Part shown: piece after piece, positions 1-61,803 of the stretch
Layout: each line of letters starts with the position of its first letter
Numbering within the stretch: the first letter of the stretch is position 1
Origin: Candidatus Cloacimonadota bacterium
Lineage (GTDB): Bacteria > Cloacimonadota > Cloacimonadia > Cloacimonadales > JAIOQZ01
Length of the DNA stretch: 64,000 bases
Assembly: GCA_021108395.1 (NCBI GenBank)
Contig: JAIOQZ010000024.1
Location: 1 to 64,000 of the forward strand
Direction: 5' to 3'
The notes under the pieces: generated by a model
Seen by the model: only the letters and a program-made list of their open reading frames with translations
Told to the model about the DNA's origin: nothing
Databases searched by the model: none
Position numbers and translations under genes: made by a program

Positions 1-52
1 CATTTTTCAGTCTTTGCTCAATAATGTTCTGCGAAAACCAGTTGTTTGCCAT
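1..52 (-). CDS. N-terminal fragment of an unidentified gene
   Basis: Only the first 17 codons lie in the window; they read MANNWFSQNIIEQRLKN from an ATG at 52. The start is supported by AAGGAG at 59-64, six bases upstream. The gene runs off the left edge and is transcribed away from the cassette array. A weak possible promoter (TGGACA with a TACAAG-like -10) lies upstream. The fragment is too short to assign a family. Confidence 0.5.
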   Translation of the reverse strand, partial: MANNWFSQNIIEQRLKN

Positions 53-155
53 AGTAAGCTCCTTATGTTTAAGGGACTTGTATCGCAATTCAGTATTTCT
101 GTCCAGTGCTAATTAGGATTTCTTGCAACTTTATTGCTCTTTATGCAAAGGTCTT

Positions 156-220
156 ATATATTGATCACAAAAGAGAGTATCCAGTTCATCAAATGGGAAA
201 GAATAAGGGTTGAACAATGA
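156..220 (+). pseudogene. 3' remnant of a B-type (propeller-like) gene
   Basis: About 65 bases match the last ~21 codons of the B genes (ITKESIQFIKWERIRVEQ then TGA) and nothing upstream of them does. The TGA overlaps the ATG of the next A gene exactly as in intact B-A pairs. It is a truncated B copy at the left end of the array, cut off by the sequence upstream of about 155. Confidence 0.8.
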
Positions 221-828
221 GAAGGGAAATGTGCATCCTGGCGATAACAGCAATTTGCTGCAGCAGTCTCTCCTCTGTCTCATTTGATATAGCCAACGAT
301 TATCTCAATCTGGAATGGACAGTTTATGAACCTAATGTCATGAACAATTACACAACGTCTGGAGACCCACATCAAGGATACACCCAATCGCACCCATGCG
401 ACTGGGTCGATAGTATTGGCGTTACAATAACGGGTATGCCCTATCATTATGGAGGAAAAGACGCAATCGAGCAATGGAACGATGATTACGAAAACGGGGG
501 CAAAGGTCCCGGAGCTCATAGTATTCATTATGCGCCGGATCCACCCAGTTCATTATCCTGGGCCGCCGGTATCGACTGTTCCGGGTTTGTGGGACGATGC
601 TGGGAACTGCCTGAAACAGCTATGCCGAATTGCGGATGCAGTTATCTGACCTCGATATCGAGCGAAGTAACCGGTCAACAAGTGCAACCGGGAGACGTTT
701 TCATTGCGAGCGTTCATGCACGACTGTGCTATGCGAGAATAGAGGATGACAGGTATAACCAGTATGTTGAAGCAGCAGAGGCAGTTGCTGTTGTTAACCT
801 TGAAGTAATTAGTATAAAAAACTCTTGA
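217..828 (+). CDS. Secreted NlpC/P60-type cysteine peptidase, short copy A1
   Basis: 203 residues. A hydrophobic signal segment (about 5-22) precedes an NlpC/P60-like domain. Visible motifs are GIDCSGFVGRCW with the likely nucleophile Cys121, then VQPGD, then the likely catalytic His167 in SVHARLCYARI, then YVEAAEA. In the family these enzymes cut peptidoglycan stem peptides; the substrate here is inferred. The protein ends at ...VISIKNS, where the full-length copy (5966-7807) continues into a beta-helix, so this copy is C-terminally truncated but keeps its catalytic residues. The ATG overlaps the stop of a B remnant. Its own stop lies inside the -35 box of the next promoter. Confidence 0.8.
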   Translation: MRREMCILAITAICCSSLSSVSFDIANDYLNLEWTVYEPNVMNNYTTSGDPHQGYTQSHPCDWVDSIGVTITGMPYHYGGKDAIEQWNDDYENGGKGPGAHSIHYAPDPPSSLSWAAGIDCSGFVGRCWELPETAMPNCGCSYLTSISSEVTGQQVQPGDVFIASVHARLCYARIEDDRYNQYVEAAEAVAVVNLEVISIKNS

Positions 829-853
829 CATACAGGGATGCATACTCTATAAT
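825..853 (+). promoter_or_regulatory. Consensus sigma-70 promoter for B1
   Basis: TTGACA at 825-830, a 17-base spacer and TATAAT at 848-853, matching the consensus at all 12 positions. The TGA stop of A1 (826-828) lies inside the -35 hexamer. About 60 bases of leader precede the B1 start. Confidence 0.85.
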
Positions 854-913
854 CCAAGTGAAAAAGTGTTCCTGAGTTATAGGACATTGTTACTAAATTC
901 TAATGGAGGAACC

Positions 914-1795
914 ATGAAGTCCGTATTTGCCTTTGCTCTCTTGCTGATATGCAGCCTCATTGCGGCGGAAACCTGGATATACGAAAAGACCGTGGTCGAG
1001 CTTCCGATGGGTGAAGCGGAGAACCAACTCGGTCTGATACTGGCGCCGGATGGATACGAAGCGCTTGATTCAGGGCCAACAAGCTTCACGATCGACGAGG
1101 ACGAGAACGTATATGTACGGACGCGAAGGAAGAACATCATAAAGAAATTCGATAGAGATGGAAACTATCTCTGTTCATCGAAGTACGAAGGCGGCGTGGG
1201 AGACGTCATCCGCTTTCTCGGATACCACGATGGCATGATCTACACTATGAGCGGGGATTTACGTGTGCCATGCATAAGAAGATACACGAGGGAACTCGAG
1301 CTCGTTGATTATCACCGAATCAGGACAAGAAATTCAAGATATTACGGGTTGAGCTTCATTGAAAATACAAATGGCGACTATGGATTTTTAAGCAACAATA
1401 ACCCGCAACGCGTAAACTTCTGTAGGTTTCAACTGTTCGACAATGAGTATAGCATCGCTGGAGCCGACTTATTCGATTTCGATTTCAAGAAAGTAGATCT
1501 AAGCAAAATATGGCCCACTGGAATTGGTTATCGTTTTCTGGATTATGATAATGATTTCCACTTCTATATTGAAAACCTGAAAGGCCCTTTAATGATTTCT
1601 GAACTTGGAATTAGTACCAGAGAAGGCGCTTTTTTCCACACAAATGTAGAGTTTGATTTCAGCTTCAACCATGGAGTAAATCTGATTGATAGAATCAATC
1701 CGGTAATATCGAGAGATGGCTGTATTTATCATATATTGATCACAGAAGAGAGTATCCAGTTCATCAAATGGGAAAGAATGAGGGTAGAGCAATGA
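914..1795 (+). CDS. Secreted beta-propeller-like (NHL-like) protein B1
   Basis: 293 residues, taking ATG at 914, which has GGAGG at 905-909. The longer reading from 866 would start inside the leader. A signal peptide (MKSVFAFALLLICSLIAAE) is followed by blades typical of NHL or six-bladed propellers: SFTIDEDENVYV...KKFDRDGNYL, then FLGYHDGMIYTM and IRRYTRELELV. Propellers of this kind usually bind ligands or proteins outside the cytoplasm; the partner is unknown. The last four bases (ATGA) overlap the start of A2, implying translational coupling. B1 is closest to B4 and shares its middle region almost unchanged. Confidence 0.7.
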   Translation: MKSVFAFALLLICSLIAAETWIYEKTVVELPMGEAENQLGLILAPDGYEALDSGPTSFTIDEDENVYVRTRRKNIIKKFDRDGNYLCSSKYEGGVGDVIRFLGYHDGMIYTMSGDLRVPCIRRYTRELELVDYHRIRTRNSRYYGLSFIENTNGDYGFLSNNNPQRVNFCRFQLFDNEYSIAGADLFDFDFKKVDLSKIWPTGIGYRFLDYDNDFHFYIENLKGPLMISELGISTREGAFFHTNVEFDFSFNHGVNLIDRINPVISRDGCIYHILITEESIQFIKWERMRVEQ

Positions 1796-2403
1796 GAAGG
1801 GGAATGTGCATCCTGGCGATAACAGCGATTTGTTGCAGCAGCCTCGCCTCTGTCTCATTTGATATTGCCAACGATTATCTCAATCTGGAATGGACAGTTT
1901 ATGAACCTAATGTCATGAACAATTACACAACGTCTGGAGACCCACATCAAGGATACACCCAATCGCACCCATGCGACTGGGTCGATAGTATTGGCGTTAC
2001 AATAACGGGTATGCCCTATCATTATGGAGGAAAAGACGCAATCGAGCAATGGAACGATGATTACGAAAACGGGGGCAAAGGTCCCGGAGCTCATAGTATT
2101 CATTATGCGCCGGATCCACCCAGTTCATTATCCTGGGCCGCCGGTATCGACTGTTCCGGGTTTGTGGGACGATGCTGGGAACTGCCTGAAACAGCTATGC
2201 CGAATTGCGGATGCAGTTATCTGACCTCGATATCGAGCGAAGTAACCGGTCAACAAGTGCAACCGGGAGACGTTTTCATTGCGAGCGTTCATGCACGACT
2301 GTGCTATGCGAGAATAGAGGATGACAGGTATAACCAGTATGTTGAAGCAGCAGAGGCAGTTGCTGTTGTTAACCTTGAAGTAATTAGTATAAAAAACTCT
2401 TGA
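1792..2403 (+). CDS. Secreted NlpC/P60-type cysteine peptidase, short copy A2
   Basis: 203 residues from the ATG at 1792, which overlaps the B1 stop. An upstream in-frame ATG at 1768 lies within B1 and is unlikely to be used. From about residue 24 to the end it is identical in protein to A1, including Cys121 (DCSGF) and His167 (HARL). Differences are confined to the signal peptide (for example MRRGM for MRREM, and SSLAS for SSLSS). It has the same C-terminal truncation and the same stop codon embedded in a -35 box. Confidence 0.8.
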   Translation: MRRGMCILAITAICCSSLASVSFDIANDYLNLEWTVYEPNVMNNYTTSGDPHQGYTQSHPCDWVDSIGVTITGMPYHYGGKDAIEQWNDDYENGGKGPGAHSIHYAPDPPSSLSWAAGIDCSGFVGRCWELPETAMPNCGCSYLTSISSEVTGQQVQPGDVFIASVHARLCYARIEDDRYNQYVEAAEAVAVVNLEVISIKNS

Positions 2404-2428
2404 CATACAGGGATGCATACTCTATAAT
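2400..2428 (+). promoter_or_regulatory. Consensus sigma-70 promoter for B2
   Basis: TTGACA 2400-2405, 17-base spacer, TATAAT 2423-2428; identical to the promoter at 825. The A2 stop (2401-2403) lies within the -35 box. Confidence 0.85.
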
Positions 2429-2488
2429 CCAAGTGAAAAAGTGTTCCTGAGTTATAGGACATTGTTACTAAATTCTAATGGAGGAACC

Positions 2489-3382
2489 ATGAAGTCCGTA
2501 TTTGCCTTTGCTCTCTTGCTGATATGCAGCCTCATTGCGGCGGAAACCTGGATATACGAAAAGACCGTGGTCGAGCTTCCGATGGGTGAGGCGGATAACC
2601 AATTGAGTCTGCGGCTTGCTCCGGAATGCTGCGAAGGAATGGACGAAGGAATGGACGAAGGTCCGACAAGTTTCACGATCGATGAGGACGAGAACATTTA
2701 TGTAATAACTCGAAGGAAAGATATCATCAAAAAATTCGATAGATACGGGAATTACATCTGTTCATCGGAATACGAAAGAAACGCAGGGGGGCCCATCCGT
2801 TTTCTCGGATACCATGACGGTATGATCTACACGATGAGTGGTGATTCACGTGCGCCATATATAAGACGATACACCAGGGAGCTTGAGCTCGTTGATTGTC
2901 ATAAGGTGAGAAAACAGGAAGGAAGCTTTACTGGACTGAGTTTCATTGAAAACAATTCAGGGAACTTCGGGTTACTCAGAAATAGTGACCCGAGAGCAAT
3001 AGGAGCCACCGAATTGGTATTGAACAATAATCAATACAGCTTACAACGAATGGATTTATTCGATTTTCAATATCGGCCAGTTGATCTGAAAGAAAAGTGG
3101 GCTACAAATATAGGTTATCGATTCATCAATCATGATAGAGACAATAATCTGTACATCGAGAACTTAATTGCCCCACTGACCGCGACCGCGCTCGGTATAA
3201 TAACTGAAAACGGTGACTTCATATACACGGATGTAGTGTTCGACTCACATATTGTGCATGGCATTCATTTCTATGACAGGATTTATCCTGTTGTTTCAAA
3301 GAGCGGAATTGTTTACAACCTGTTAGTTACCGAAGATAATATTGAACTCATTCGATGGCAGAAGACGGGAGTTGAACAATGA
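2489..3382 (+). CDS. Secreted beta-propeller-like protein B2 (diverged C-terminal two thirds)
   Basis: 297 residues from the ATG at 2489 with the same GGAGG as B1. The signal peptide and first ~35 residues are nearly identical to the other B proteins. From about residue 115 onward the sequence differs strongly (CHKVRKQEGSF, LFDFQYRPVDLKEKW) and the C-terminus (NIELIRWQKTGVEQ) is the most deviant of the four. Four extra residues come from a duplicated 12-base unit encoding GMDE. Its stop overlaps A3 by ATGA. The divergent block continues into the A3 signal peptide, so both were probably exchanged together. Confidence 0.7.
   Translation: MKSVFAFALLLICSLIAAETWIYEKTVVELPMGEADNQLSLRLAPECCEGMDEGMDEGPTSFTIDEDENIYVITRRKDIIKKFDRYGNYICSSEYERNAGGPIRFLGYHDGMIYTMSGDSRAPYIRRYTRELELVDCHKVRKQEGSFTGLSFIENNSGNFGLLRNSDPRAIGATELVLNNNQYSLQRMDLFDFQYRPVDLKEKWATNIGYRFINHDRDNNLYIENLIAPLTATALGIITENGDFIYTDVVFDSHIVHGIHFYDRIYPVVSKSGIVYNLLVTEDNIELIRWQKTGVEQ
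2633..2656 (+). repeat. 12-base tandem duplication inside B2
   Basis: GAAGGAATGGAC occurs twice in a row (2633-2644, 2645-2656), adding GMDE to the protein. The same duplication is in B3 at 4217-4240. It is absent from B1 and B4 and accounts for 297 against 293 residues. It shows that B2 and B3 share a recent 5' ancestor. Confidence 0.9.
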
Positions 3383-3987
3383 GAAGAACAACATATACAA
3401 TCCTTTTTGTAATGGGATTTGCAGTGGTTTCTGCTCTGTCGCTGGAACTGGCGGAAGACTATCTCAATTTTGAATGGACGGTTTATGAAGCTAATGTCAT
3501 GAACAATTACACATCGTCTGGAGACCCACATCAAGGATACACCCAATCGCACCCATGCGACTGGGTCGATAGTATTGGCGTTACAATAACGGGTATGCCC
3601 TATCATTATGGAGGAAAAGACGCAATCGAGCAATGGAACGATGATTACGAAAACGGGGGCAAAGGTCCCGGAGCTCATAGTATTCATTATGCGCCGGATC
3701 CACCCAGTTCATTATCCTGGGCCGCCGGTATCGACTGTTCCGGGTTTGTGGGACGATGCTGGGAACTGCCTGAAACAGCTATGCCGAATTGCGGATGCAG
3801 TTATCTGACCTCGATATCGAGCGAAGTAACCGGTCAACAAGTGCAACCGGGAGACGTTTTCATTGCGAGCGTTCATGCACGACTGTGCTATGCGAGAATA
3901 GAGGATGACAGGTATAACCAGTATGTTGAAGCAGCAGAGGCAGTTGCTGTTGTTAACCTTGAAGTAATTAGTATAAAAAACTCTTGA
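3379..3987 (+). CDS. Secreted NlpC/P60-type cysteine peptidase, short copy A3 with different signal peptide
   Basis: 202 residues from the ATG overlapping the B2 stop. The leader (MRRTTYTILFVMGFAVVSAL) and the next ~20 residues differ from the other A copies. From about residue 42 (NVMNNYT) the protein is essentially identical to A1 and A2, with DCSGF, VQPGD and HARL motifs intact. The switch from diverged to identical marks a recombination or gene-conversion edge near base 3500. It has the same truncated end as A1 and A2. Confidence 0.8.
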   Translation: MRRTTYTILFVMGFAVVSALSLELAEDYLNFEWTVYEANVMNNYTSSGDPHQGYTQSHPCDWVDSIGVTITGMPYHYGGKDAIEQWNDDYENGGKGPGAHSIHYAPDPPSSLSWAAGIDCSGFVGRCWELPETAMPNCGCSYLTSISSEVTGQQVQPGDVFIASVHARLCYARIEDDRYNQYVEAAEAVAVVNLEVISIKNS

Positions 3988-4012
3988 CATACAGGGATGC
4001 ATACTCTATAAT
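3984..4012 (+). promoter_or_regulatory. Consensus sigma-70 promoter for B3
   Basis: TTGACA 3984-3989, 17-base spacer, TATAAT 4007-4012; a third copy of the same promoter, with the A3 stop (3985-3987) inside the -35 box. Confidence 0.85.
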
Positions 4013-4072
4013 CCAAGTGAAAAAGTGTTCCTGAGTTATAGGACATTGTTACTAAATTCTAATGGAGGAACC

Positions 4073-4966
4073 ATGAAGTCCGTATTTGCCTTTGCTCTCT
4101 TGCTGATATGCAGCCTCATTGCGGCGGAAACCTGGATATACGAAAAGACCGTGGTCGAGCTTCCGATGGGTGAGGCGGATAACCAATTGAGTCTGCGGCT
4201 TGCTCCGGAATGCTGCGAAGGAATGGACGAAGGAATGGACGAAGGTCCGACAAGTTTCACGATCGATGAGGACGAGAACATTTATGTAATAACTCGAAGG
4301 AAAGATATCATCAAAAAATTCGATAGATACGGGAATTACATCTGTTCATCGGAATACGAAAGAAACGCAGGGGGGGCCATCCGTTTTCTCGGATACCATG
4401 ACGGTATGATCTACACTATGAGTTGGGGATCGAGTAATCCTTATATTCGGAGATACACGAGGGATCTTGAATTCATCGATTGTCATAAAGTCAAGCCAGG
4501 AGACGAAAACCTTAGTGGATTGGCTTTTTTGGTAAATCCGAAAGGAGAATTAGGCTTAATTACAAACAATAATCCTCAAAATGTTAGACTTAGCTTGATG
4601 GAGCTTGTAAATGGCCAATACGCTCTTAGGAACACAAACCTGTTCGATTTCGAATATGCGAAAATTGACTTGGAAAATGCATGGCCCACTGGACTTGGAT
4701 ATAGATTTCTGAATTTCGATGATAACTGTGTTTTTTATATAGAGAACCTGAAAGGTCGTTTGATGACTTCTGAACTTGGTATCGCAACCAAAGAAGGCGC
4801 TTTTATCCATACAAATGTCGAGTTTGATTTCAGCTTCAACCATGGAGTAAATTTCTATGACAGAATCCATCCATTAATTTCAAGAGATGGCTGTATTTAT
4901 CACATATTGATCACAGAAAAGAGTATCCAGTTCATCAAATGGGAAAGAATAAGGGTTGAACAATGA
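4073..4966 (+). CDS. Secreted beta-propeller-like protein B3 (mosaic)
   Basis: 297 residues from the ATG at 4073, preceded by GGAGG. The N-terminal ~125 residues match B2, including the GMDE duplication. The middle (WGSSNPYIRRYTRDLEFIDCHKVKPG onward) is unique to this copy. The last ~70 residues (ENLKGRLMTSELGI, HTNVEFDFSFNHGVN) return to the B1 type. It is therefore a mosaic of at least three segments. Its stop overlaps the start of a broken A gene at 4963. Confidence 0.7.
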   Translation: MKSVFAFALLLICSLIAAETWIYEKTVVELPMGEADNQLSLRLAPECCEGMDEGMDEGPTSFTIDEDENIYVITRRKDIIKKFDRYGNYICSSEYERNAGGAIRFLGYHDGMIYTMSWGSSNPYIRRYTRDLEFIDCHKVKPGDENLSGLAFLVNPKGELGLITNNNPQNVRLSLMELVNGQYALRNTNLFDFEYAKIDLENAWPTGLGYRFLNFDDNCVFYIENLKGRLMTSELGIATKEGAFIHTNVEFDFSFNHGVNFYDRIHPLISRDGCIYHILITEKSIQFIKWERIRVEQ

Positions 4967-5025
4967 GAAGGGAAATGTGCATCCTGGCGATAATTTTCTT
5001 GACATTTATGAAACAGAATTTATAA
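4963..5025 (+). pseudogene. A-gene stub: signal-peptide remnant only
   Basis: The ATG overlaps the B3 stop as in intact pairs. The first ten codons (MRREMCILAI) match the A genes. The frame then runs into the next promoter region and stops after 20 codons. The peptidase domain is deleted, so the next promoter sits immediately after the signal-peptide start. It is a decayed cassette member; the 20-residue peptide might still be translated. Confidence 0.8.
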
Positions 5026-5026
5026 T
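4999..5026 (+). promoter_or_regulatory. Sigma-70 promoter for B4
   Basis: TTGACA 4999-5004, a 16-base spacer and TATAAT 5021-5026. The hexamers equal those of the other three promoters but the spacer and leader sequences differ, so this is a diverged relative. It overlaps the A stub. Confidence 0.75.
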
Positions 5027-5087
5027 CTATGTGAAAAAGAATTCATGAAATACTGAATGATATAACCTCAAATTCTCTGGAGGAACC

Positions 5088-5969
5088 ATGAAGTCCGTAT
5101 TTGCCTTTGCTCTCTTGCTGATATGCAGCCTCATTGCGGCGGAAACCTGGATATACGAAAAGACCGTGGTTGAGCTTCCGATGGGCGAAGCGGAGAACCA
5201 ACTCGGTCTGATACTGGCGCCGGATGGATACGAAGAACTTGATTCAGGGCCAACAAGCTTCACGATCGACGAGGACGAGAACGTATACGTACTGACGCGA
5301 AGAAAGAACATCATCAAAAAATTCGATAAAGATGGAAACTATCTCTGTTCATCGAAGTACGAAGGCGGCGTAGGAGACGCCATCCGCTTTCTCGGATACC
5401 ACGATGGCATGATCTACACTATGAGCGGGGATTTACGTGTGCCATGCATAAGAAGATACACGAGGGAACTCGAGCTCGTTGATTATCACCGAATCAGGAC
5501 AAGAAATTCAAGATATTACGGGTTGAGCTTCATTGAAAATACAAATGGCGACTATGGATTTTTAAGCAACAATAACCCGCAACGCGTAAACTTCTGTAGG
5601 TTTCAACTGTTCGACAATGAGTATAGCATCGCTGGAGCCGACTTATTCGATTTCGATTTCAAGAAAGTAGATCTAAGCAAAATATGGCCCACTGGAATTG
5701 GTTATCGTTTTCTGGGTTATGATAATAATTTCCACTTCTATATTGAAAACCTGAAAGGTCCTTTAATGGCTACAGAACTTGGGATTACAACCAGAGAAGG
5801 CGCTTTTATCCACACAAACGTAGAGTTTGATTACCACTTCACCCATGGAATACATCTGATTGATATAATCAATCTGGTAATTTCAAGAGATGGCTGTATT
5901 TATCATATATTGATCACAGAAGAAAGTATCCAGTTCATCAAATGGGAAAGAATAAGGGTTGAACAATGA
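5088..5969 (+). CDS. Secreted beta-propeller-like protein B4
   Basis: 293 residues with ATG at 5088 and GGAGG just upstream. It has the same signal peptide and propeller-like motifs as B1 (SFTIDEDENVYV, FLGYHDGMIYTM). Most of the protein is B1-like; differences cluster in the last quarter (MATELGITTREGAF, EFDYHFTHGIHLIDIIN). It is translationally coupled to the only full-length A gene, so this pair (5088-7807) may represent the ancestral arrangement. Confidence 0.7.
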   Translation: MKSVFAFALLLICSLIAAETWIYEKTVVELPMGEAENQLGLILAPDGYEELDSGPTSFTIDEDENVYVLTRRKNIIKKFDKDGNYLCSSKYEGGVGDAIRFLGYHDGMIYTMSGDLRVPCIRRYTRELELVDYHRIRTRNSRYYGLSFIENTNGDYGFLSNNNPQRVNFCRFQLFDNEYSIAGADLFDFDFKKVDLSKIWPTGIGYRFLGYDNNFHFYIENLKGPLMATELGITTREGAFIHTNVEFDYHFTHGIHLIDIINLVISRDGCIYHILITEESIQFIKWERIRVEQ

Positions 5970-7807
5970 GAAGGGGAATGTGCATCCTGGCGATAACAGC
6001 GATTTGCTGCAGCAGTCTTTCCTCTGTCTCATTTGATATAGCCAACGATTATCTCAATCTGGAATGGACGGTTTATGAAGCTAATGTCATGAACAATTAC
6101 ACAACGTCTGGAGACCCACATCAAGGATACACCCAATCGCACCCATGCGACTGGGTCGATAGTATTGGCGTTACAATAACGGGTATGCCCTATCATTATG
6201 GAGGAAAAGACGCAATCGAGCAATGGAACGATGATTACGAAAACGGGGGCAAAGGTCCCGGAGCTCATAGTATTCATTATGCGCCGGATCCACCCAGTTC
6301 ATTATCCTGGGCCGCCGGTATCGACTGTTCCGGGTTTGTGGGACGATGCTGGGAACTGCCTGAAACAGCTATGCCGAATTGCGGATGCGGTTATCTGACC
6401 TCGATATCGAACGAAATAACCGGTCAACAAGTGCAACCGGGAGACGCTTTCATTGCGAGCGCTCATGCACGACTGTGCTATGCGAGAATAGAAGACGATC
6501 CGGATAATCAGTATGTTGAAGTAGCAGAGGCAGTTGCTGTTACTGACGGTGTAGTAATTAATAAAACTGTCGTGAGGATGTACGAAATTTACCAATTGCA
6601 ACTGGATGGCTACTCCTGCCGTTCTTACTCTGATTCCACAAATATCGCAGCGGGTTCCGTCTCGGGAACCTGGACATTGGACAACGGCCCCTACATGATC
6701 CATGGAGACATCGAGGTGGATTCCACCTCGACCCTCACCATCGAAGCGGGGGTCAACGTGATTTTCACCGGGCATTACAGCTTCACCGTATATGGCAAAC
6801 TGCTCGCTTCGGGCACGGAAAACATGAATGTATTCTTTACTGCGGAAGACAGTACAACCGGCTGGGGTGGTTTGCGGTTCATCAACAACAATGCCAGCGG
6901 ACTGGGACGTTCATGCCTGGTCAACTGCAAAATAGAACGAGGAAGGGCGAATGGCGCCTGGCCGGATTGCGTGGGCGGAGGTATCTTCTGTCAGTATTCC
7001 AATGTTCTGGTCGATACCTGTGTTATCACCAACAACCACGCTGGTGGAGGGGGAGGTATTTACCTCAACAATTCCCACGCTGAGATCAATTACTCGTTGA
7101 TTTCCCATAACACAGCACAGGACTTCGGTGGCGGGGTCATGATGTATCAGAGCTGTTATCCCTCGTTGTGCAACAACACCATTGTCGATAATATTGTCGA
7201 AGACACGAGCTATGGCGGCGGCGGTGGCATCTTCGGCGATATAACCTGCAACCCCACCATCGGAAACACGATCGTATGGGGCAATACGTCAACTCAGGTC
7301 TTTCTGGAATATAGTAGATACACGATCATGTACTGCGATGTTGAAGACTTCCTTTTTCCCGGAGACGGCAATATATCGAGCAATCCGATGTTCGCCGGCG
7401 CTGATCCCGAATACTATCAATTAACGGAAAACTCCCCCTGTATCGACACTGGTTATCCGGGAGCGACCGACCCGGACGGAACAAGACTCGATATGGGTGC
7501 CTATCCATTCTACCAAGCGCCAGAGCCGCCTGAAGTGAGCATATCCATCGAAGATGACCATGTGAACGTTGAATGCGGTGGATCGGAGCGCAATACGTAT
7601 GTGGTCTATTCGTCAGACAGTCCTGAAGGCCCCTTCACCATTGATGAGACGGGCTCGTTCACTGACAATGTGTGGACAGCGCCGGTTACATCGGATTCCA
7701 GATATTACTATGTCACAACCGTTTCAGGGGATCGTAGTAATAATCAAGAAATAATCCTAATGAGTGAACTGATAGGAAACTACAAGCGCCTTTCTATAAA
7801 ACGCTGA
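5966..7807 (+). CDS. Secreted NlpC/P60 peptidase with beta-helix and C-terminal Ig/FN3-like region, full-length copy A4
   Basis: 613 residues. After the signal peptide, residues ~45-190 are the same NlpC/P60-like domain as in the short copies (DCSGF, VQPGD, HARL, YVEVAEA). Residues ~220-515 form a right-handed parallel beta-helix: a start like GPYMIHGDIEVDSTSTLTIE, then Gly-rich coils (GGGGGIYLNN, GGGVMMY, GGGGGIFGD), closing with SPCIDTG and LDMGAYPF, an ending common to secreted polysaccharide-binding or lyase-like helices. Residues ~525-600 resemble a fibronectin/Ig module. No recognisable sorting tail follows. It likely binds a surface glycan or wall and cleaves peptide links; that is inference. 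Confidence 0.8.
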   Translation: MRRGMCILAITAICCSSLSSVSFDIANDYLNLEWTVYEANVMNNYTTSGDPHQGYTQSHPCDWVDSIGVTITGMPYHYGGKDAIEQWNDDYENGGKGPGAHSIHYAPDPPSSLSWAAGIDCSGFVGRCWELPETAMPNCGCGYLTSISNEITGQQVQPGDAFIASAHARLCYARIEDDPDNQYVEVAEAVAVTDGVVINKTVVRMYEIYQLQLDGYSCRSYSDSTNIAAGSVSGTWTLDNGPYMIHGDIEVDSTSTLTIEAGVNVIFTGHYSFTVYGKLLASGTENMNVFFTAEDSTTGWGGLRFINNNASGLGRSCLVNCKIERGRANGAWPDCVGGGIFCQYSNVLVDTCVITNNHAGGGGGIYLNNSHAEINYSLISHNTAQDFGGGVMMYQSCYPSLCNNTIVDNIVEDTSYGGGGGIFGDITCNPTIGNTIVWGNTSTQVFLEYSRYTIMYCDVEDFLFPGDGNISSNPMFAGADPEYYQLTENSPCIDTGYPGATDPDGTRLDMGAYPFYQAPEPPEVSISIEDDHVNVECGGSERNTYVVYSSDSPEGPFTIDETGSFTDNVWTAPVTSDSRYYYVTTVSGDRSNNQEIILMSELIGNYKRLSIKR

Positions 7808-10916: not shown

Positions 10917-13900
10917 CTACTTCAGCAGCAGCATCTTACGCACGTCGGAGACGCCACCGGCGCGCAGACGCGAGAAATACACCCCCGAGGCCACCGGACG
11001 GCCATTGTCGTCGTCGCCTTGCCAAACCACCGAATGGCTGCCCTCTGCGCGGTATCCGTTCACGAGCGTACGCACAAGCTGGCCGCGAATGTTATACACG
11101 CACAGTGTGCTGTGAGAGGGCTTGGCCAGGCTGAACGCGATAGTTGTCGTCGGATTGAACGGGTTGGGGTGGTTGCCGGTCAGTTCGGTGCGCAGTGGCG
11201 CCAGCTCATCGTCACCGGCGGGATTGGTGTTCATGTCGGTGTAGCAGGCTGTGCGACGCAGGTTGCCGCGAAAGGTCGTCCAGGGCATATCTTCGCCCAG
11301 AGGCAGCTTGCAGTCGATGATGAGCGCCCCGCTGGAAACGCCGCAAACGATCTCGGCATCGCCATCGCCGTCCATGTCGGCTATGCTGGCGGGCGTGTTG
11401 CCCACGAGGTTCACCGGTACTGGCGAGAAAGCCACCTCGCTGGCGTCGGCGTTGAAAACGTAGAGGTTCGACAGGCCGGTAAACTGGATTAACTCCACCT
11501 CGCCGTCACCGTCGATGTCGGCGGCCAGCGGCGGATAGAGGATAGTGCCACCGATGTTGACCGGCCATCCGGGTAGCGGGCTGCCGTATTGGTTACAGAT
11601 GTAGAGTCGGCCATTCTGGGTGGCGAAAGCGATCTCGGCGCCGTGGCCGGGAACGAAGTCGGCGGCGATGGCGCTGCCGGCGATGCGGCCTTCGAGAGCA
11701 AGGGCGCTCAGCAGTTCTCCCTCGTAGCTCACAATCTGTAGGGAGTTATCCTGCGTGCCCAGCACGATGCGGCCATTGCCCAGCGAAATGGGGCCTGCAC
11801 CCACCCCGGCGTCGAATGAAAGCGGGAAGTTGTCGAAGCTCGAGCCGTCGCCGCGAATGGCGTGGAGGTTGCCGTCAAGGTCGCCCAGAAGAATCTCGGC
11901 AGCGCCATCGTCATCGAGATCTGAGGCGCAGATGTCGCTGGCCACCGTGCCAATCTGCACGGGGAAACCAGCCTGCAGGTCGCCTTCGTGAGAAAGGACA
12001 TAGAGCTGGCCGTCGAGCCCGATGCTTATCACTTCAAAAAAGCCGTCACCGTCAACGTCCGCCACAACCGGCGTGATGAGCAGGTCGGTGCAGTCGTCAT
12101 AGCGGAACAGCTCGGTGCCGTCGAGAGACCAGGCGCCCATCGCACCCATGCGGCTCGCCCAGACGACCTCGGGCACATCGTCGCCGTTCAGGTCGGCAAA
12201 GGCGGCGCTGCGCCAGAGGTTTTCCTCGTGGTTTATCGGATAGCCGGAGAACGGCTGTGCTGCAATGTCGAGGCCGGTGAGAGTGCCGTTGATGCTCACC
12301 GCGAGCACATCGAGGTTGCTGTCGCCGTCAAGATCGTGCAGGATGGGAGCGGCTCGGAACTGCTGGCCGCTCGCCCAGGGCCAACCCGATTGAAACAGTC
12401 CGACATCGAATGAGAGGTCGTAGGTTTTGATGAAAGTGGCGGTGCTTGACTGCGCTGTAATCGTTGCCTGATAGGCGTAGCTGTCATAGTTGCAATCCTC
12501 TGGCACGATGATGACGAACGGCGTAGCGTTGGTGGCCGTGCCGCCCTCTGGAATAGCGCCGTAATTGGCGGTGGCGGTGACAATCTGAATCGTCGAATCG
12601 TCGCAGGAGATTGTCGCCTCGACCAGCGGGGCGTTTGCCCAACCATCGAGATTGTGGAGTTGCAGGTAAATGTCAACGGTCTCGCCCGGGTTCAGAATGC
12701 CGTCGCCGTCACCCTGGGTGTCATCGTAGGTCACGCCGGCGGTAACGATGTAGGGATAATCGCCAGTGGCGTCTTTCACCGTCGCTGTCGGGTCGCCCAT
12801 AACCATCAGTTCATAATACACCCAGCGCATAACGCCGCTACTGAGCGCCTGATTGACAAGCATCTCTTTGGAGAAGTTGTTGGCGTCACCCAGGCGGCGG
12901 ATATCGTAGTCGAACAATGCCTCGAAGAACGTATGATCGTAATACTGTGAGGCGCCGTTGGTGCTTCCTGGCGCATACCATCCGTAGCGGGTGTTGCCTA
13001 CGAAGGCATAGAGTCCGTGCGCCGAGTTGGTGAGGTTCTCCGCCACGCATTCGCCAACCTGGCTGGTGCGCTCGTCGAAGGCTGCCGGAAGGCAACCCTG
13101 TGAGTAGGCGAATCCGTACTCTGTGTTGATGAGAGCAGAGACGCTGGAGTTGGTGAGCCCGAAAACAATGCCGGAGTTGGAGTGGCCCATGTGGTTGATG
13201 ATGGCCATGCCGCCGTTGATGGCGTCCTTCACCGCCTGCCCGCTGAAGGTATCCTCGCGTTCATAGCGCGTGTAAACATGAAAATCATCGGGAATGTAAG
13301 GAATAATCTCGTCTTTGTAGTCGCCACCCCAGGTGAGAGGGTTGTTATTGAGATTCTCGCCCAGCATAAAGGCAATATCGTTGGCATATGATGGCTCGTC
13401 GGCGTAATGATAATTCTTGTCGAACACATTCTGAAATTCGCTTTGTGTTTCGGCGCTGATGCGGCCAATGGCGACCTCGGGCAGCATGTCGGGGTTGTCG
13501 GACGGCTCGCCGTAGATTCCGTTGCCGTTGCCGTTCCAGTCGCCGTCGAGGTTACTGTAATACATATCGCAGGGGATTCGGTTGTCGATGTTGTTGCCGA
13601 CCTGGCCAAAACAGCCGCGCTCCGGCACGATTTCGTCATCGCCGCCCAGCAGCACGTATTCCAGCGGGGTACCGGTGCCTGCGTAGCATGTGTAGGCATC
13701 GATGATGAAGTTTCGCACGGCGTCGGCGTTGTCGTCGCCGGCATATTCGCCATAGATCCACTCGGTGGTGAACACGCCGGCGCTGATGCCCCTGGCCAGC
13801 TTCCAGTCCACGAACTCGTCGAACCAGGAAACGCGGGCGGCATCGGTGATGATGATCATCGTGTAGGGACCGTCGGGGTCTCTGCCACCCGACATCGAGG

Positions 13901-14504
13901 TGAGGTTGCGATAGGTGTCCAGCATGGACGGATTGTCAATCAATTGGCGTACGCCACGCAGGGCTTTTTCGTCCGTACGAATCATGCGGCGCTGCTCATC
14001 CAGCAAAGCGCGGCTTGAAGTGGTGCGAACCTCGATGGTGAAGCTCGATGACCACACGAGTTCCTCGCGAACCGGATTCCAGCGGTAGGGGAACACATTC
14101 AGCAGCACCATGTCGTAGCCCTGCTTGCGCTGGGCGCCAAGCTCACGGAACAACGGCGAGGGCCAGAAGGCGTCCACGCCGTAGATGGCAGGGTCGGGCT
14201 GCGTGTTGTCGGGGCGGGGCATCGAGATGGGCTGCGGGGCGCGGCTGTAGTCGATGCGAACGCCGGTAATCGTCTCGGCGTCGCTCAGGCTGACCGAGAC
14301 GCCGGTGAGTTGTTCGCCGGCGGGCAGCAGCAGTCTCACAGGCACAAACGGCAATGCAGGCTGGCCTGCTTCGAGCACGACGGGCAGGTTCACCTCGAGC
14401 CGCCGGCCGCGCACATCAGGCGACTGCACATCGTAAGTTTGAGCGAAGTCGGCCACCAGCAGCAGCGGCAACAACAAGGCAATAATGGTGATAACGCGTT
14501 TCAT
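10917..14504 (-). CDS. Gingipain-type (C25) cysteine peptidase with sorting tail
   Basis: 1195 residues, RBS GGAGGAG before ATG. Order: signal peptide (MKRVITIIALLLPLLLVA); an N-terminal beta-rich prodomain; a C25-like catalytic domain with likely His in INHMGHSN (about residue 439) and likely Cys in AYSQGCLPAAF (about 471). Next come a CARDB/Ig-like module near GDGDGILNPGETVDIYLQL, a long run of FG-GAP/VCBS-like propeller repeats (DLDGDSNLDVLAV, DVDGDGFFEVISI, DIDGDGEVELIQF), and a C-terminal FlgD-like/T9SS-like tail (NHPNPFNPTTTIAFSL ... GVYFSRL). In FCB bacteria this tail directs outer-membrane secretion. It is probably an exported nutritional or processing protease. Nothing looks broken. 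Confidence 0.85.
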   Translation of the reverse strand: MKRVITIIALLLPLLLVADFAQTYDVQSPDVRGRRLEVNLPVVLEAGQPALPFVPVRLLLPAGEQLTGVSVSLSDAETITGVRIDYSRAPQPISMPRPDNTQPDPAIYGVDAFWPSPLFRELGAQRKQGYDMVLLNVFPYRWNPVREELVWSSSFTIEVRTTSSRALLDEQRRMIRTDEKALRGVRQLIDNPSMLDTYRNLTSMSGGRDPDGPYTMIIITDAARVSWFDEFVDWKLARGISAGVFTTEWIYGEYAGDDNADAVRNFIIDAYTCYAGTGTPLEYVLLGGDDEIVPERGCFGQVGNNIDNRIPCDMYYSNLDGDWNGNGNGIYGEPSDNPDMLPEVAIGRISAETQSEFQNVFDKNYHYADEPSYANDIAFMLGENLNNNPLTWGGDYKDEIIPYIPDDFHVYTRYEREDTFSGQAVKDAINGGMAIINHMGHSNSGIVFGLTNSSVSALINTEYGFAYSQGCLPAAFDERTSQVGECVAENLTNSAHGLYAFVGNTRYGWYAPGSTNGASQYYDHTFFEALFDYDIRRLGDANNFSKEMLVNQALSSGVMRWVYYELMVMGDPTATVKDATGDYPYIVTAGVTYDDTQGDGDGILNPGETVDIYLQLHNLDGWANAPLVEATISCDDSTIQIVTATANYGAIPEGGTATNATPFVIIVPEDCNYDSYAYQATITAQSSTATFIKTYDLSFDVGLFQSGWPWASGQQFRAAPILHDLDGDSNLDVLAVSINGTLTGLDIAAQPFSGYPINHEENLWRSAAFADLNGDDVPEVVWASRMGAMGAWSLDGTELFRYDDCTDLLITPVVADVDGDGFFEVISIGLDGQLYVLSHEGDLQAGFPVQIGTVASDICASDLDDDGAAEILLGDLDGNLHAIRGDGSSFDNFPLSFDAGVGAGPISLGNGRIVLGTQDNSLQIVSYEGELLSALALEGRIAGSAIAADFVPGHGAEIAFATQNGRLYICNQYGSPLPGWPVNIGGTILYPPLAADIDGDGEVELIQFTGLSNLYVFNADASEVAFSPVPVNLVGNTPASIADMDGDGDAEIVCGVSSGALIIDCKLPLGEDMPWTTFRGNLRRTACYTDMNTNPAGDDELAPLRTELTGNHPNPFNPTTTIAFSLAKPSHSTLCVYNIRGQLVRTLVNGYRAEGSHSVVWQGDDDNGRPVASGVYFSRLRAGGVSDVRKMLLLK

Positions 14505-49189: not shown

Positions 49190-52100
49190 CTATTCTTCCG
49201 GAAGCGTCAACTCGTCGGTTGATTCCTCGTCCGAAACTGCTTTCTCAGTAAACACAGGGATAGCCACGAAGGCGGTTGTGCCCTCGTTTACTTTGCTTTG
49301 CAGCCAGATACGCCCGCCATGCAACTCCACGATACGCTGGCATGTGGCCAGACCGATGCCCAATCCGCTCGAACGATACTCGACGAATCCAGACTTGTGC
49401 GACCATAAGTCGTTCAGTTCATAGAACTTCTTGAATACGTTTTCCTGCTCGTGTTCCGGGATGCCGATACCGTTGTCCTGAACATAGACTACCAGGCTCT
49501 TGTTTCCATCGATTTCTTCGGTGGGAAACGAAGACAGGCGCACCCCGATGACGATGGTGCCAAAGTCTTTGGTGAAACGGATAGCGTTGTGAACCAGGTT
49601 ATACAGCAGCAGGTCGAACGCCTCCCAGTTGGCCTGAATCCGCGGCAGAGTCTCCGGCATTTCCAGGCTGATTCGCATCTTGCGCTCGGCTGAGATGATC
49701 TCGGCGCGATTGAATATTTCTTCGAGGATAGGGCGCACATCGGTGGGCTCACGGTTCAGCGTGGTTATCATCGAGTACTTGTTCAGCGTAACGATGTCCC
49801 TGGTGGTCGAGAGCAGTTTCTTCACGCTCTCTTCCAGTTTACCGAGGTTCTTGCCCACCTCGGTCTGATCGCCCTCGGTCTTCTTCCGCAGGCGGTTCAC
49901 ATAGCCCTGAAGGGTAACCAGCGGCGTGTTCAGCTCGTGACTGACGATGGCGATGAAGTTATCCTTCACCAGGTCGAGCGTTTGCAGCTCGAGGTTCTTT
50001 CGCACCAGCATCTCGTACTGCCGCGCATTCTTCAGAGCCACCGAGAACTCGAGGAGCAGCATGTCCATGAAATCGGTGTTGAGGTGTGTTTCCTCCTGGC
50101 TCGAGTTGAAGTTGTCGAGATAGAGAAAACCGTGCAGGCCGTCGTCAACGAAGATGGGCGCGCAGTAGATGGAGTGAAGCTGGTAATCCTGAACGCTGAT
50201 GGAGTTCTTGAATGTGTTGTCGAGCATGGCGTTCAGCGTATAGATTGATTCCCCGGTAGTCTGCACTTCGCTCAACAGCGTCTTGCTGACGTTGATAAAC
50301 TCTCGCATCAGTTGCTTCTGCTCGTCCATCGCCACCTGATAGACATAGTTGCCAAATGTGTCTTTCTTGATGAGAAACCCGCGTGAAAACCCGGTGAAGT
50401 CTATGGCGAAGCTGACGATCTCGTGTTCGAGCTTGCCCACGTCATGAATACTGAAGAACTCCTGCGAAGCTGTCATGATCTTCTGGAGTAACTGCATTCG
50501 GCGGCTGAGATCACCAAACTCTTTGATGCGCATAAGAATGGAGGTAAGATGCAATCGCAGTACGCGGGCAATCCGCAGCTCGGGGCCGCGAAACGGCATT
50601 TCGCCCAGGTCAGAGAGCAACAGACAGCCAACTTTGGTGGAACGTATCTTGAGCGGAACAAACAGGAAATGCTTGCCTTGCATTTCCTTTGAACGTATTT
50701 TGTTCATTTCTACGCACTTCTCGATTTCGGAAAACACTTCGGGAACATAGAGGTCGTCTTCGCTCATGTTGTGCAGCAGGAAAGATTTACCGTGTCTCTT
50801 GAACTCGTCGTAGAGCAGAACGGAGTAGGCATCGGGCGCCAGCAGGTTGTGAACGATTTTATCGATGAAAAATTTCATCCGTCCAATCTCGTTGAGCTTG
50901 AAAAGATCGTAAAGCTGATTCTGCCATTCATCTTTCTGGTATCTTGTTCTTGGCGTGACGGTTACACTGACCATTTCTTTCACGTCGCCGTCAAGCTGAT
51001 GCCTGTGCCGCAGCAATTTGCGGTCGTGCTCGGGAATCTTGCGGCAAGCCGCCTCGACACGTTCCCGCAGCTTCGCATGATACTCACTGGTCATTTTCTC
51101 CTGCCGCAGGCTCATATAAATCTGTGTCAGCCGCACATAAATATCGATTTCGAGTATGAAAAACTTCTGTTTCTTCACCGAGTCGATCATGGCCAGCAGG
51201 CTTCGCAGCACACGCCGCAGAGGCACGCTCCGATCGAGCAGTTCGAGGTCGCAGCGGGCAAGTTGGGCGACAATGTCCCAGTACTTGAAATTATAGGTCT
51301 TGATGAGTTGCTCGGCGCGTTCGAGATGGGCCATGCCAGTTTCCAGATTGCCCAGGGCAACGTAGCAACGCACAATATCGATGTGCAGAATGGCCTGTGC
51401 ATATGCGCTTCGATTCCGTTGGGCGTATTCCATCGCCTGCTCGAAGTGCTGGATAGCCGTTTCGGGGTCTTCGGTGTGCAGCGACATCAGACCCAGAATC
51501 TGGTAATAGAACTCCTCCTCGCGCTGCTCGACAAAATTGATCTGAGTGTTCCGCTGCATCAGAGCGACAACCTCCTCCACATTGCCGATGTGAAACAGGT
51601 AATAGAACCATGTTTTCACCAGCGGCGTAAGCGCCTTAACGCGGCCTTCGATTAGTTCGGGAGCGTGTTTCTTGATAAAAGCGTAGTAGCGGTCGAAGCC
51701 GCGAATCTTGATGAGCGTGAGCGCCAGGTTGTTGCGCACAGATTGCAGGAAGTCGGTGCCGCCCATCTCGACGATGATGGTCTCGGCTTTGTTCAGATAC
51801 GACTCGGCTTTGCTGAACCGCCCCTGCTTGATGTACGCCTCACCGAAATTGATGAATGCCAGTACCTGTCCGCGTTTCTGATCAACGCGGTCGCAGAGAT
51901 CGAAGGCCTTCTGGAAGTAGATGAAGGCGGTCTTTGTATCACCCTGGCGCAGGGCGATGTCGCCAATATTGTTATACACCAGGCCAAGTGAGCGCACATT
52001 GTTGACCTTCTCCCAGATTCGTTTGGCTTTCTGAAAATTCTTCTGCGCCTCCTCGATGGATTTCTCTGATATGTAGAGAAAGGCCAGATTGTTGTATAGA

Positions 52101-54694: not shown

Positions 54695-55009
54695 AGTTTC
54701 CTCCATAATACCAGTGACTATGTATGCAGGTGGGCTGAGGAATGTCAAGAACACTTCGCCCAACACAGACATACCCTCGGAAATTTTGCAAAAAAGGCGA
54801 CCCAGTTATTTTATTCAAAAGTCGATGCAAATTTGTCCTAACTTCGGAATTGATGTGTTAAAACACACCTGTATCGCTCAGTTTGAACAAATTTGCTATC
54901 GATTTGCTTTTGAAAAAGCAAACACAAAACGACAGACAGAGACGATGAGCAGGTTTCGCTTGCCAGGTTCTGCGCTCCGCATAGACTTTGCCAGAGCAGG
55001 AGGCGCGGT
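54695..55009. other. Divergent intergenic region between giant kinase and adenine deaminase
   Basis: 315 bases, AT-rich toward the deaminase side. It contains an eight-base AT-rich hairpin TTTGCTTT / AAAGCAAA (54903-54910, 54915-54922) and the AGGAGG of the deaminase (near 54998). I saw no purine-riboswitch-like core, tRNA or strong promoter match. Confidence 0.5.
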
Positions 55010-61219: not shown

Positions 61220-61803
61220 TGCCGTTTACCGTGCAAGACACCGCCCTGCGCGACGTGAAGCTGCTGAACATCACCCGCTTTGACGACGCCCGTGGCTGGT
61301 TCATCGAGGCGCACAAGCACAGCGACTTCACCGCCGCCGGCATCGAGGCGCAATTCGTTCAGGACAACTGCTCACGTTCGAGCAGGGGCGTCCTGCGCGG
61401 ATTGCATTTTCAGTTGCCTCCGCATGAACAGGGCAAGCTCATCCTGCCGCTCGAAGGCCGTCTCTACGACGTCGCGCTCGACCTGCGCACCGGCTCGCCG
61501 AGCTATAACCGCTGGCAGGCATTCACGCTCGACGCCGCCACCCCGCAGGCGTTGTGGATACCACCCGGCTTCGCGCACGGGTTCCTCGTGCTCAGCGAGA
61601 CGGCGCTGTTCCTGTACAAAGTCACCGCCGAATACGCCCCCGGCCACGAGGGTGGCATCCGCTGGGATGACCCCGACCTGGGCATCGAGTGGCCGCAACG
61701 CCAGCCGGTGTTGTCGCCCAAGGACACAGCGCTGCCGTTGTTGAAAGATTTTTGTTCGCCGTTTGTATATGGCTCAGCGGCGGGAAAAGAAAAAGGCGTC
61801 TGA
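61219..61803 (+). CDS. rfbC: dTDP-4-dehydrorhamnose 3,5-epimerase
   Basis: 194 residues from the ATG at 61219. RmlC motifs: DDARGWFIEAHKH, FVQDNCSRSSRGVLRGLHFQ, KLILPLEGRLYDVALDLR, WIPPGFAHGFLVLSE, KVTAEYAPGHEGGIRWDDPD. Acts in dTDP-L-rhamnose synthesis for surface glycans; rfbA, B and D are not in the window. Its 3' end overlaps the opposing patatin gene by 30 bases. Confidence 0.9.
   Translation: MPFTVQDTALRDVKLLNITRFDDARGWFIEAHKHSDFTAAGIEAQFVQDNCSRSSRGVLRGLHFQLPPHEQGKLILPLEGRLYDVALDLRTGSPSYNRWQAFTLDAATPQALWIPPGFAHGFLVLSETALFLYKVTAEYAPGHEGGIRWDDPDLGIEWPQRQPVLSPKDTALPLLKDFCSPFVYGSAAGKEKGV

What the first reader, a model, noticed from the sequence alone, without database searches (positions are those of the whole stretch)
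156..7807. A tandem cassette array of secreted propeller (B) and NlpC/P60 peptidase (A) genes
Four B genes, four A genes (three truncated, one full length), an A stub and a B remnant alternate with strict B-A translational coupling (ATGA). The catalytic Cys and His are kept in every intact A, while B varies strongly outside its N-terminus. A constant exported enzyme paired with a variable exported binding protein suggests a diversifying secreted pair. Possibilities include effector with inhibitor, toxin with immunity, or hydrolase with swappable targeting subunit. The pairing is what I see; the roles are inferred.
Basis: partly seen in the sequence, partly recalled or inferred. Interest (0 to 1): 0.85.

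Follow-up and report, generated by a model that had tools for sequence, protein, structure and literature searches.

The report
Duplicated propeller and wall-hydrolase gene pairs
An uncultured Cloacimonadota bacterium carries four tandem copies of a two-gene unit encoding an exported propeller-shaped protein and a cell-wall-cutting enzyme, and the copies that degenerated lost the enzyme while keeping the propeller, as expected if the propeller protects the cell from, or restrains, its own exported enzyme.

Summary
The array is real as sequence. It holds four intact B genes (six-bladed NHL-type propeller, signal peptide) and four A genes (divergent NlpC/P60 hydrolase, ATGA-coupled to B; three truncated inside the peptidase fold, one with a beta-helix tail). 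It also has an A stub and a B remnant. Each B has its own perfect TTGACA/TATAAT promoter; these are the only four in 64 kb. The genome is a Cloacimonadota MAG. The same B-A pair is single-copy in three other Cloacimonadales, where A ends in a type IX secretion tail and B does not. B evolves faster than A there too (28-49% versus 45-75% identity). One relative fuses a propeller-like unit, the NlpC/P60 domain and a beta-helix. Best reading: an ancestral exported hydrolase plus a cognate periplasmic propeller, probably inhibitor or immunity as in Tse1/Tsi1, amplified by unequal recombination so that Bs persist and As decay. A targeting role for B is the main rival. Interaction is untested. Copy order is not secure (exact repeats to 861 bp, apparent k=55 assembly).

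The parts
155..220 (+). B remnant: last 21 codons of a B gene; homology to B starts at about 155
   Evidence: tblastn 90% identity to B4 residues 273-293; alignment shows homology beginning at about position 155
217..828 (+). A1: NlpC/P60-like gene, truncated (203 aa), ATGA overlap with the B remnant
825..853 (+). Consensus promoter TTGACA-N17-TATAAT of B1; the -35 overlaps the A1 stop codon
   Evidence: 4 exact matches in 64 kb, 0.01 expected
914..1795 (+). B1: exported NHL-type propeller, 293 aa
   Evidence: fold from B4 model
1792..2403 (+). A2: truncated NlpC/P60-like gene, 203 aa
   Evidence: (PF00877 E=0.005, below cut-off)
2400..2428 (+). Consensus promoter of B2
2489..3382 (+). B2: propeller, 297 aa; codons 1-110 nearly identical to B3, rest diverged
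3379..3987 (+). A3: truncated NlpC/P60-like gene, 202 aa, with diverged first 30 codons
3984..4012 (+). Consensus promoter of B3
4073..4966 (+). B3: propeller, 297 aa; mosaic (N-terminal part as B2, C-terminal 50 codons 88% identical to B1)
4963..5025 (+). A stub: first 10 codons of A, then unrelated sequence; leaves B3 without an A partner
   Evidence: (family D9)
4999..5026 (+). Promoter of B4, TTGACA-N16-TATAAT, a different variant
5088..5969 (+). B4: propeller, 293 aa
   Evidence: AlphaFold pLDDT 75.8; Foldseek probability 1.00 to NHL propellers
5966..7807 (+). A4: full-length, 613 aa: signal peptide, NlpC/P60-like core (about 25-222), right-handed beta-helix (PMP/NosD-like), C-terminal tail without a detected T9SS domain

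Best explanation
The locus is a genome-specific tandem amplification of an ancestral two-gene operon. Gene A encodes an exported peptidoglycan hydrolase of the NlpC/P60 type; in relatives its type IX tail marks it for passage across the outer membrane. Gene B, translated first and coupled to A, encodes a propeller that has a signal peptide but no type IX tail, so it should stay in the periplasm. I think B binds A in the producer's periplasm and holds it inactive, as an inhibitor or immunity protein, so that only exported enzyme cuts wall, of rivals or of dead cells. A tandem copy truncated A inside its peptidase domain. Recombination between the identical A-promoter-B blocks then multiplied and shuffled the units and brought in divergent B alleles. 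B genes remain intact under their own promoters while A copies decay. Shown: the anatomy, the conserved pair, the promoter sequences, the mosaicism and purifying selection on B. Inferred: that B and A bind, that B inhibits A, where each ends up, and what A targets.
For: The pair is conserved with B upstream of A in G015, G051 and G042; in G042 the overlap is ATGA and in G015 a 142-aa gene lies between them. A ends in a T9SS sorting domain in these genomes (seen in the translation), and B matches no such domain where scanned. SprA, the T9SS translocon, is present in the host and the relatives tested. B evolves faster than A in all six genome pairs. In the array all four Bs that have a start are intact, while three of four As lack the end of the peptidase fold and a fifth is a stub. 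Four exact consensus promoters occur, one per B. The precedent is Tse1/Tsi1: an NlpC/P60 hydrolase whose periplasmic immunity protein is a partial beta-propeller, tsi1 upstream of tse1, with an overlapping start and stop in Burkholderia phytofirmans (PMC3391265). Arrays in which effectors are displaced and immunity genes kept are known in other bacteria (PMC5361080).
Against: No interaction, inhibition or activity was tested, and A4 could not be modelled (pLDDT 32). In G092 a propeller-like unit, the NlpC/P60 domain and a beta-helix form one ORF; if that unit is a B homologue (weak), B travels with A, which suits a binding domain better than an immunity protein. A4 itself has no detected T9SS tail. 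The truncated A genes are open frames that keep Cys, His and Glu, so their inactivity is inferred. A full six-bladed NHL propeller is not the partial propeller of Tsi1, and no sequence link between A and Tse1 or B and Tsi1 was found.
Confidence: 0.42

Rival explanations
1. B is a binding or targeting subunit: a secreted propeller that recognises glycan or protein on the substrate and positions A; divergent Bs widen the range of targets.
For: The G092 ORF has a propeller-like unit of about B's length in front of the NlpC/P60 domain, which begins where mature A begins. A beta-helix (PMP/NosD-like) follows the hydrolase both in G092 and in A4. In two genomes of another family an exported protein of 410-446 aa is ATGA-coupled to an M23 peptidase, with a T9SS tail shown in G114, hinting at a general pairing.
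Against: B matches no secretion or surface domain where scanned, while A does in relatives, so they would end up in different places. Only one A in the array is complete, so extra Bs would have little to steer. The homology of the G092 N-terminal unit to B is weak (score 24.6 against a shuffle maximum of 23.0), and the 410-446-aa proteins could not be shown to be propellers.
Confidence: 0.3
2. Neutral amplification: a tandem duplication expanding and decaying by recombination, with no benefit from extra Bs; the B-A pair has an ordinary envelope role such as wall recycling.
For: The identical blocks are very recent (zero synonymous differences), truncations and stubs are present, and no other genome in the phylum sample shows an array.
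Against: Four intact B frames, diverged yet with B-B dN/dS around 0.1-0.3, and a perfect promoter for every B are not what decay alone leaves; however, the constraint may predate the duplication.
Confidence: 0.18
3. Assembly artefact: reads of several strains or copies were threaded into a false array.
For: The contig starts inside the locus. Contigs C15 and C21 share exactly 55 bp at their ends and then diverge, the mark of a k=55 de Bruijn graph, which cannot by itself phase exact repeats of 659-861 bp.
Against: Four different B bodies, distinct A N-termini, two promoter variants and a stub are unique sequences that need several units. Unique sequence, not only the repeat, would have to be mis-joined.
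Confidence: 0.1

Closest known systems
Tse1/Tsi1 (Tae1/Tai1) effector-immunity pair of Pseudomonas aeruginosa (PMC3391265)
   Same: NlpC/P60 hydrolase paired with an exported beta-propeller-type partner; bicistronic; partner gene upstream in P. aeruginosa; overlapping start and stop in Burkholderia phytofirmans; partner less conserved than the enzyme.
   Different: Tse1 is delivered by a type VI system. Here A has a Sec signal, T9SS tails in relatives, and no VipB was found. Tsi1 is a partial propeller and B a full NHL-type one. No detectable sequence similarity. A4 has an extra beta-helix, and the third active-site residue looks like Glu (inferred).
Immunity-gene arrays left by displaced effectors (type VI arrays in Vibrio, PMC5361080)
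   Same: Tandem copies of a partner gene interleaved with fragments of effector genes; mosaicism by homologous recombination.
   Different: No type VI cluster. Most units keep both genes as a pair and each has its own promoter. Immunity function is untested here.
NlpC/P60 peptidases such as Spr of E. coli (PDB 2k1g)
   Same: G-x-DCSG motif on the catalytic Cys, a later His, and the PYxxGG motif upstream.
   Different: Very divergent: below the Pfam cut-off; best PDB match Spr at E=1.1. An insertion lies between the GG motif and DCSG.
NHL-repeat six-bladed propellers (Brat, TRIM2/3/71, PknD sensor)
   Same: Fold: Foldseek probability 1.00; profile E=0.004 to Brat over the first blades.
   Different: About 10% identity; TM-scores 0.35-0.55 with a moderate-quality model; an exported bacterial protein.
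T9SS-linked polymorphic toxins of Bacteroidetes (TANFOR/BaCT, PMC7073777)
   Same: Idea of T9SS-exported antibacterial enzymes with linked immunity genes.
   Different: No TANFOR domain seen; partner upstream rather than downstream; hydrolase rather than DNase.

Membership tests
NlpC/P60 peptidase (PF00877) | Score above the Pfam gathering cut-off | tested here: not met
   Best 17.2 bits for window A2 against a cut-off of 23; 18.1 bits for G015 A
NlpC/P60 peptidase (PF00877) | Catalytic Cys in a DCSG motif and a downstream His in register | tested here: met
   C121 and H167 invariant in seven A proteins; the GIDCSG motif aligns with Spr; profile match 98.2% to the G092 domain, which itself matches PF00877 weakly
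NlpC/P60 peptidase (PF00877) | Complete papain-like core in the truncated copies | tested here: not met
   A1-A3 stop near column 197; relatives continue about 20 residues to a conserved Y-containing strand
NHL-type six-bladed beta-propeller | Predicted propeller fold and structural match | tested here: met
   moderate model quality
Tse1/Tsi1 type VI effector-immunity pair | Type VI secretion system in the genome | tested here: not met
   No VipB (PF05943) in the six genomes searched; E. coli control positive
Tse1/Tsi1 type VI effector-immunity pair | Sequence similarity to Tse1 or Tsi1 | tested here: not met
   No such chain among PDB matches of A3 to E=10 or A2 to E=1
Tse1/Tsi1 type VI effector-immunity pair | Partner binds and blocks the enzyme | not testable with these tools
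   No complex prediction or assay was available
T9SS cargo | C-terminal sorting domain (PF18962/TIGR04183) on A | tested here: inconclusive
   Met in A of G015 and G042 and visible in G051 and G088 translations; not detected on window A4
Known anti-phage defence system | Match to PADLOC models | tested here: not met

The most novel reading that the evidence does not exclude
A family of exported wall hydrolases (type IX in relatives) whose cognate immunity proteins are full NHL propellers, with loci that grow by recombination into arrays of divergent propellers that protect against related strains: a second, independent pairing of an NlpC/P60 enzyme with a propeller inhibitor outside type VI secretion, in an uncultured phylum.
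Probability: 0.3. Interest if true: 0.72.

Novelty: new variant of a known kind. Interest (0 to 1): 0.52.

Why it matters
If the reading is right, NlpC/P60 enzymes have been paired with propeller-type restraining partners more than once, and Cloacimonadota, which have few cultured members, carry secreted antagonism or wall-scavenging loci that evolve by array recombination. Even on the cautious reading, the locus defines a conserved, unnamed two-gene family (B-A) in Cloacimonadales and shows that the apparent constancy of one gene in an array can come from gene conversion rather than selection.

Tried and rejected
Positive diversifying selection on B: rejected; B-B dN/dS is about 0.1-0.3 where dS is not saturated. 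Anti-phage defence: no PADLOC match. Phage or plasmid origin: no relative of A in viral contigs, no B in plasmids, only weak PHROG matches. Type VI effector: no VipB. NHL lipoproteins in G109, G110, G111 and G124 as B relatives with a peptidase partner: no peptidase next to them. Structure of A4: the model failed (pLDDT 32), so the effect of the truncation on the fold rests on alignment only. Other M23 peptidases as a general test of a propeller-hydrolase theme: most hits look like housekeeping genes and few neighbourhoods were read. Papers joining NlpC, propeller, NHL and peptidoglycan: none in the library.

Full report
Observation. Counting from the left: a B tail (155-220), A1 (217-828), B1 (914-1795), A2 (1792-2403), B2 (2489-3382), A3 (3379-3987), B3 (4073-4966), an A stub (4963-5025), B4 (5088-5969) and A4 (5966-7807). 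All B-A junctions overlap as ATGA. Exact repeats of 861, 723 and 659 bp connect the units. The window is the start of contig C15 (70,581 bp) of a 2.89 Mb, 62-contig genome. Its relatives in the named collection are Cloacimonadota/Cloacimonadales MAGs (one record is labelled Armatimonadetes but matches a genome placed in the same order).

What the proteins are. A has a signal peptide (by eye) and a divergent NlpC/P60 core. Pfam matches are below the cut-off, but C121 in GIDCSG, H167 and E188 are invariant in all members that cover them, and the best PDB profile hit is the NlpC/P60 protein Spr, aligned on the catalytic motif (E=1.1). E188 as the third active-site residue is my inference. A1-A3 end near residue 200, about 20 residues before the point where the relatives' domain ends, so they probably lack the last core strand (that this strand is structural is knowledge of the NlpC/P60 fold, not a test here). 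A4 continues into a beta-helix (Chlam_PMP E=1e-4). B has a signal peptide (by eye) and no secretion tail where scanned. Its profile matches the NHL propeller Brat (E=0.004), and an AlphaFold model (pLDDT 75.8) matches NHL propellers with Foldseek probability 1.00, at modest TM-scores of 0.35-0.55.

The pair is ancestral. In the phylum sample of 125 genomes, A is found in six genomes (one of them the distant fused form) and B in four with a strong match plus one more distant. In G015, G051 and G042 one B precedes one A. The A genes of G015 and G042 end in a T9SS sorting domain by Pfam or NCBIfam, and those of G051 and G088 do so by their C-terminal sequence. The T9SS translocon SprA is present in the six genomes tested, and type VI VipB is absent from all six. 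B is less conserved than A in every pair of genomes (28-49% against 45-75%). In G092 one ORF of at least 1,159 aa runs signal peptide, a 320-residue unit, NlpC/P60, beta-helix; the NlpC part starts where mature A starts. Whether the first unit is a B-type propeller is not settled (score 24.6 against 23.0 for the best of 60 shuffles). In G114 a clear B homologue (99.7% profile probability) lies near, but not next to, an M23 peptidase with a T9SS tail. That peptidase is ATGA-coupled to another exported protein of 446 aa, and a similar couple exists in G124.

How the array formed. The invariant block starts inside A, passes the A stop codon and the promoter, and ends inside B. It contains no synonymous or non-coding change in up to 861 bp, whereas flanking B and A N-terminal sequence is saturated at synonymous sites. 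The constancy of A is therefore a property of the DNA block. The B bodies look like old alleles under purifying selection (dN/dS about 0.1-0.3 where it can be computed) reassorted by recombination: B3 has the N-terminal part of B2 and a C-terminal part close to B1. The truncated A ends at a join between A sequence and the region just upstream of a B promoter, so the stop codon lies in the -35 box. Each B has an exact TTGACA-N16/17-TATAAT promoter-like site; there are four in the window, 0.01 expected, and none elsewhere. Three of the four are copies of one another, so they count as two independent sites.

How it most likely works. Four facts point to B as a periplasmic restraint on A: B is made first and coupled; B has no outer-membrane export tail while A has one in relatives; B varies faster; and where the array decays it is A that is lost. 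The fold pair, gene order and coupling have a proven parallel in Tse1/Tsi1 (PMC3391265), and arrays of immunity genes with displaced effectors are documented in other bacteria (PMC5361080). This is resemblance in working, not membership: no type VI system and no sequence similarity were found. The fused G092 protein is the main reason to keep a targeting or binding role open.

Limits. The contig begins in the locus, and its first 55 bp recur at the end of contig C21, with divergence right after. That pattern implies a k=55 assembly, which could not by itself phase repeats of this length, so unit order and the perfect identity of A1-A3 could partly be assembly products; the distinct B bodies are not. 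No binding, activity or localisation was tested. Confidence in the inhibitor or immunity reading is about 0.4.

Noticed in passing
window 1-55 and L066 5547-5601 (contig C21 end): Identical 55 bp at two contig ends, encoding on the minus strand the start of an ORF (MANNWFSQNIIEQRLKN...); sequences diverge immediately after. Probably the edge of a repeated, perhaps mobile, element beside the array.
   Followed up: partly
L046 486-3962: Open-ended ORF of at least 1,159 aa in genome G092 joining a propeller-like unit, an NlpC/P60 domain and a PMP-type beta-helix.
   Followed up: partly
L045 6982-9527 and L101 3134-5202: Exported proteins of 446 and 410 aa, 30% identical, of unknown family, ATGA-coupled to M23 peptidases (T9SS tail confirmed in L045).
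   Followed up: partly
L020 2384-2812: A 142-aa gene for a protein with one N-terminal hydrophobic stretch lies between B and A in genome G015 only.
   Followed up: no
window 10917-14504 (minus): Large secreted protein of 1,195 aa that looks like a C25-type peptidase with a T9SS-type C-terminal domain (by eye).
   Followed up: no
window 49190-54772 (minus): 1,860-aa protein that appears to join a serine/threonine kinase, tetratricopeptide repeats and a histidine kinase (by eye).
   Followed up: no
window 61774-63921 (minus): 715-aa protein that appears to join a patatin-like domain and an outer-membrane barrel (by eye).
   Followed up: no
L028: The record is titled Armatimonadetes but coincides with a genome placed in the same order as the window's; probably mislabelled.
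   Followed up: no
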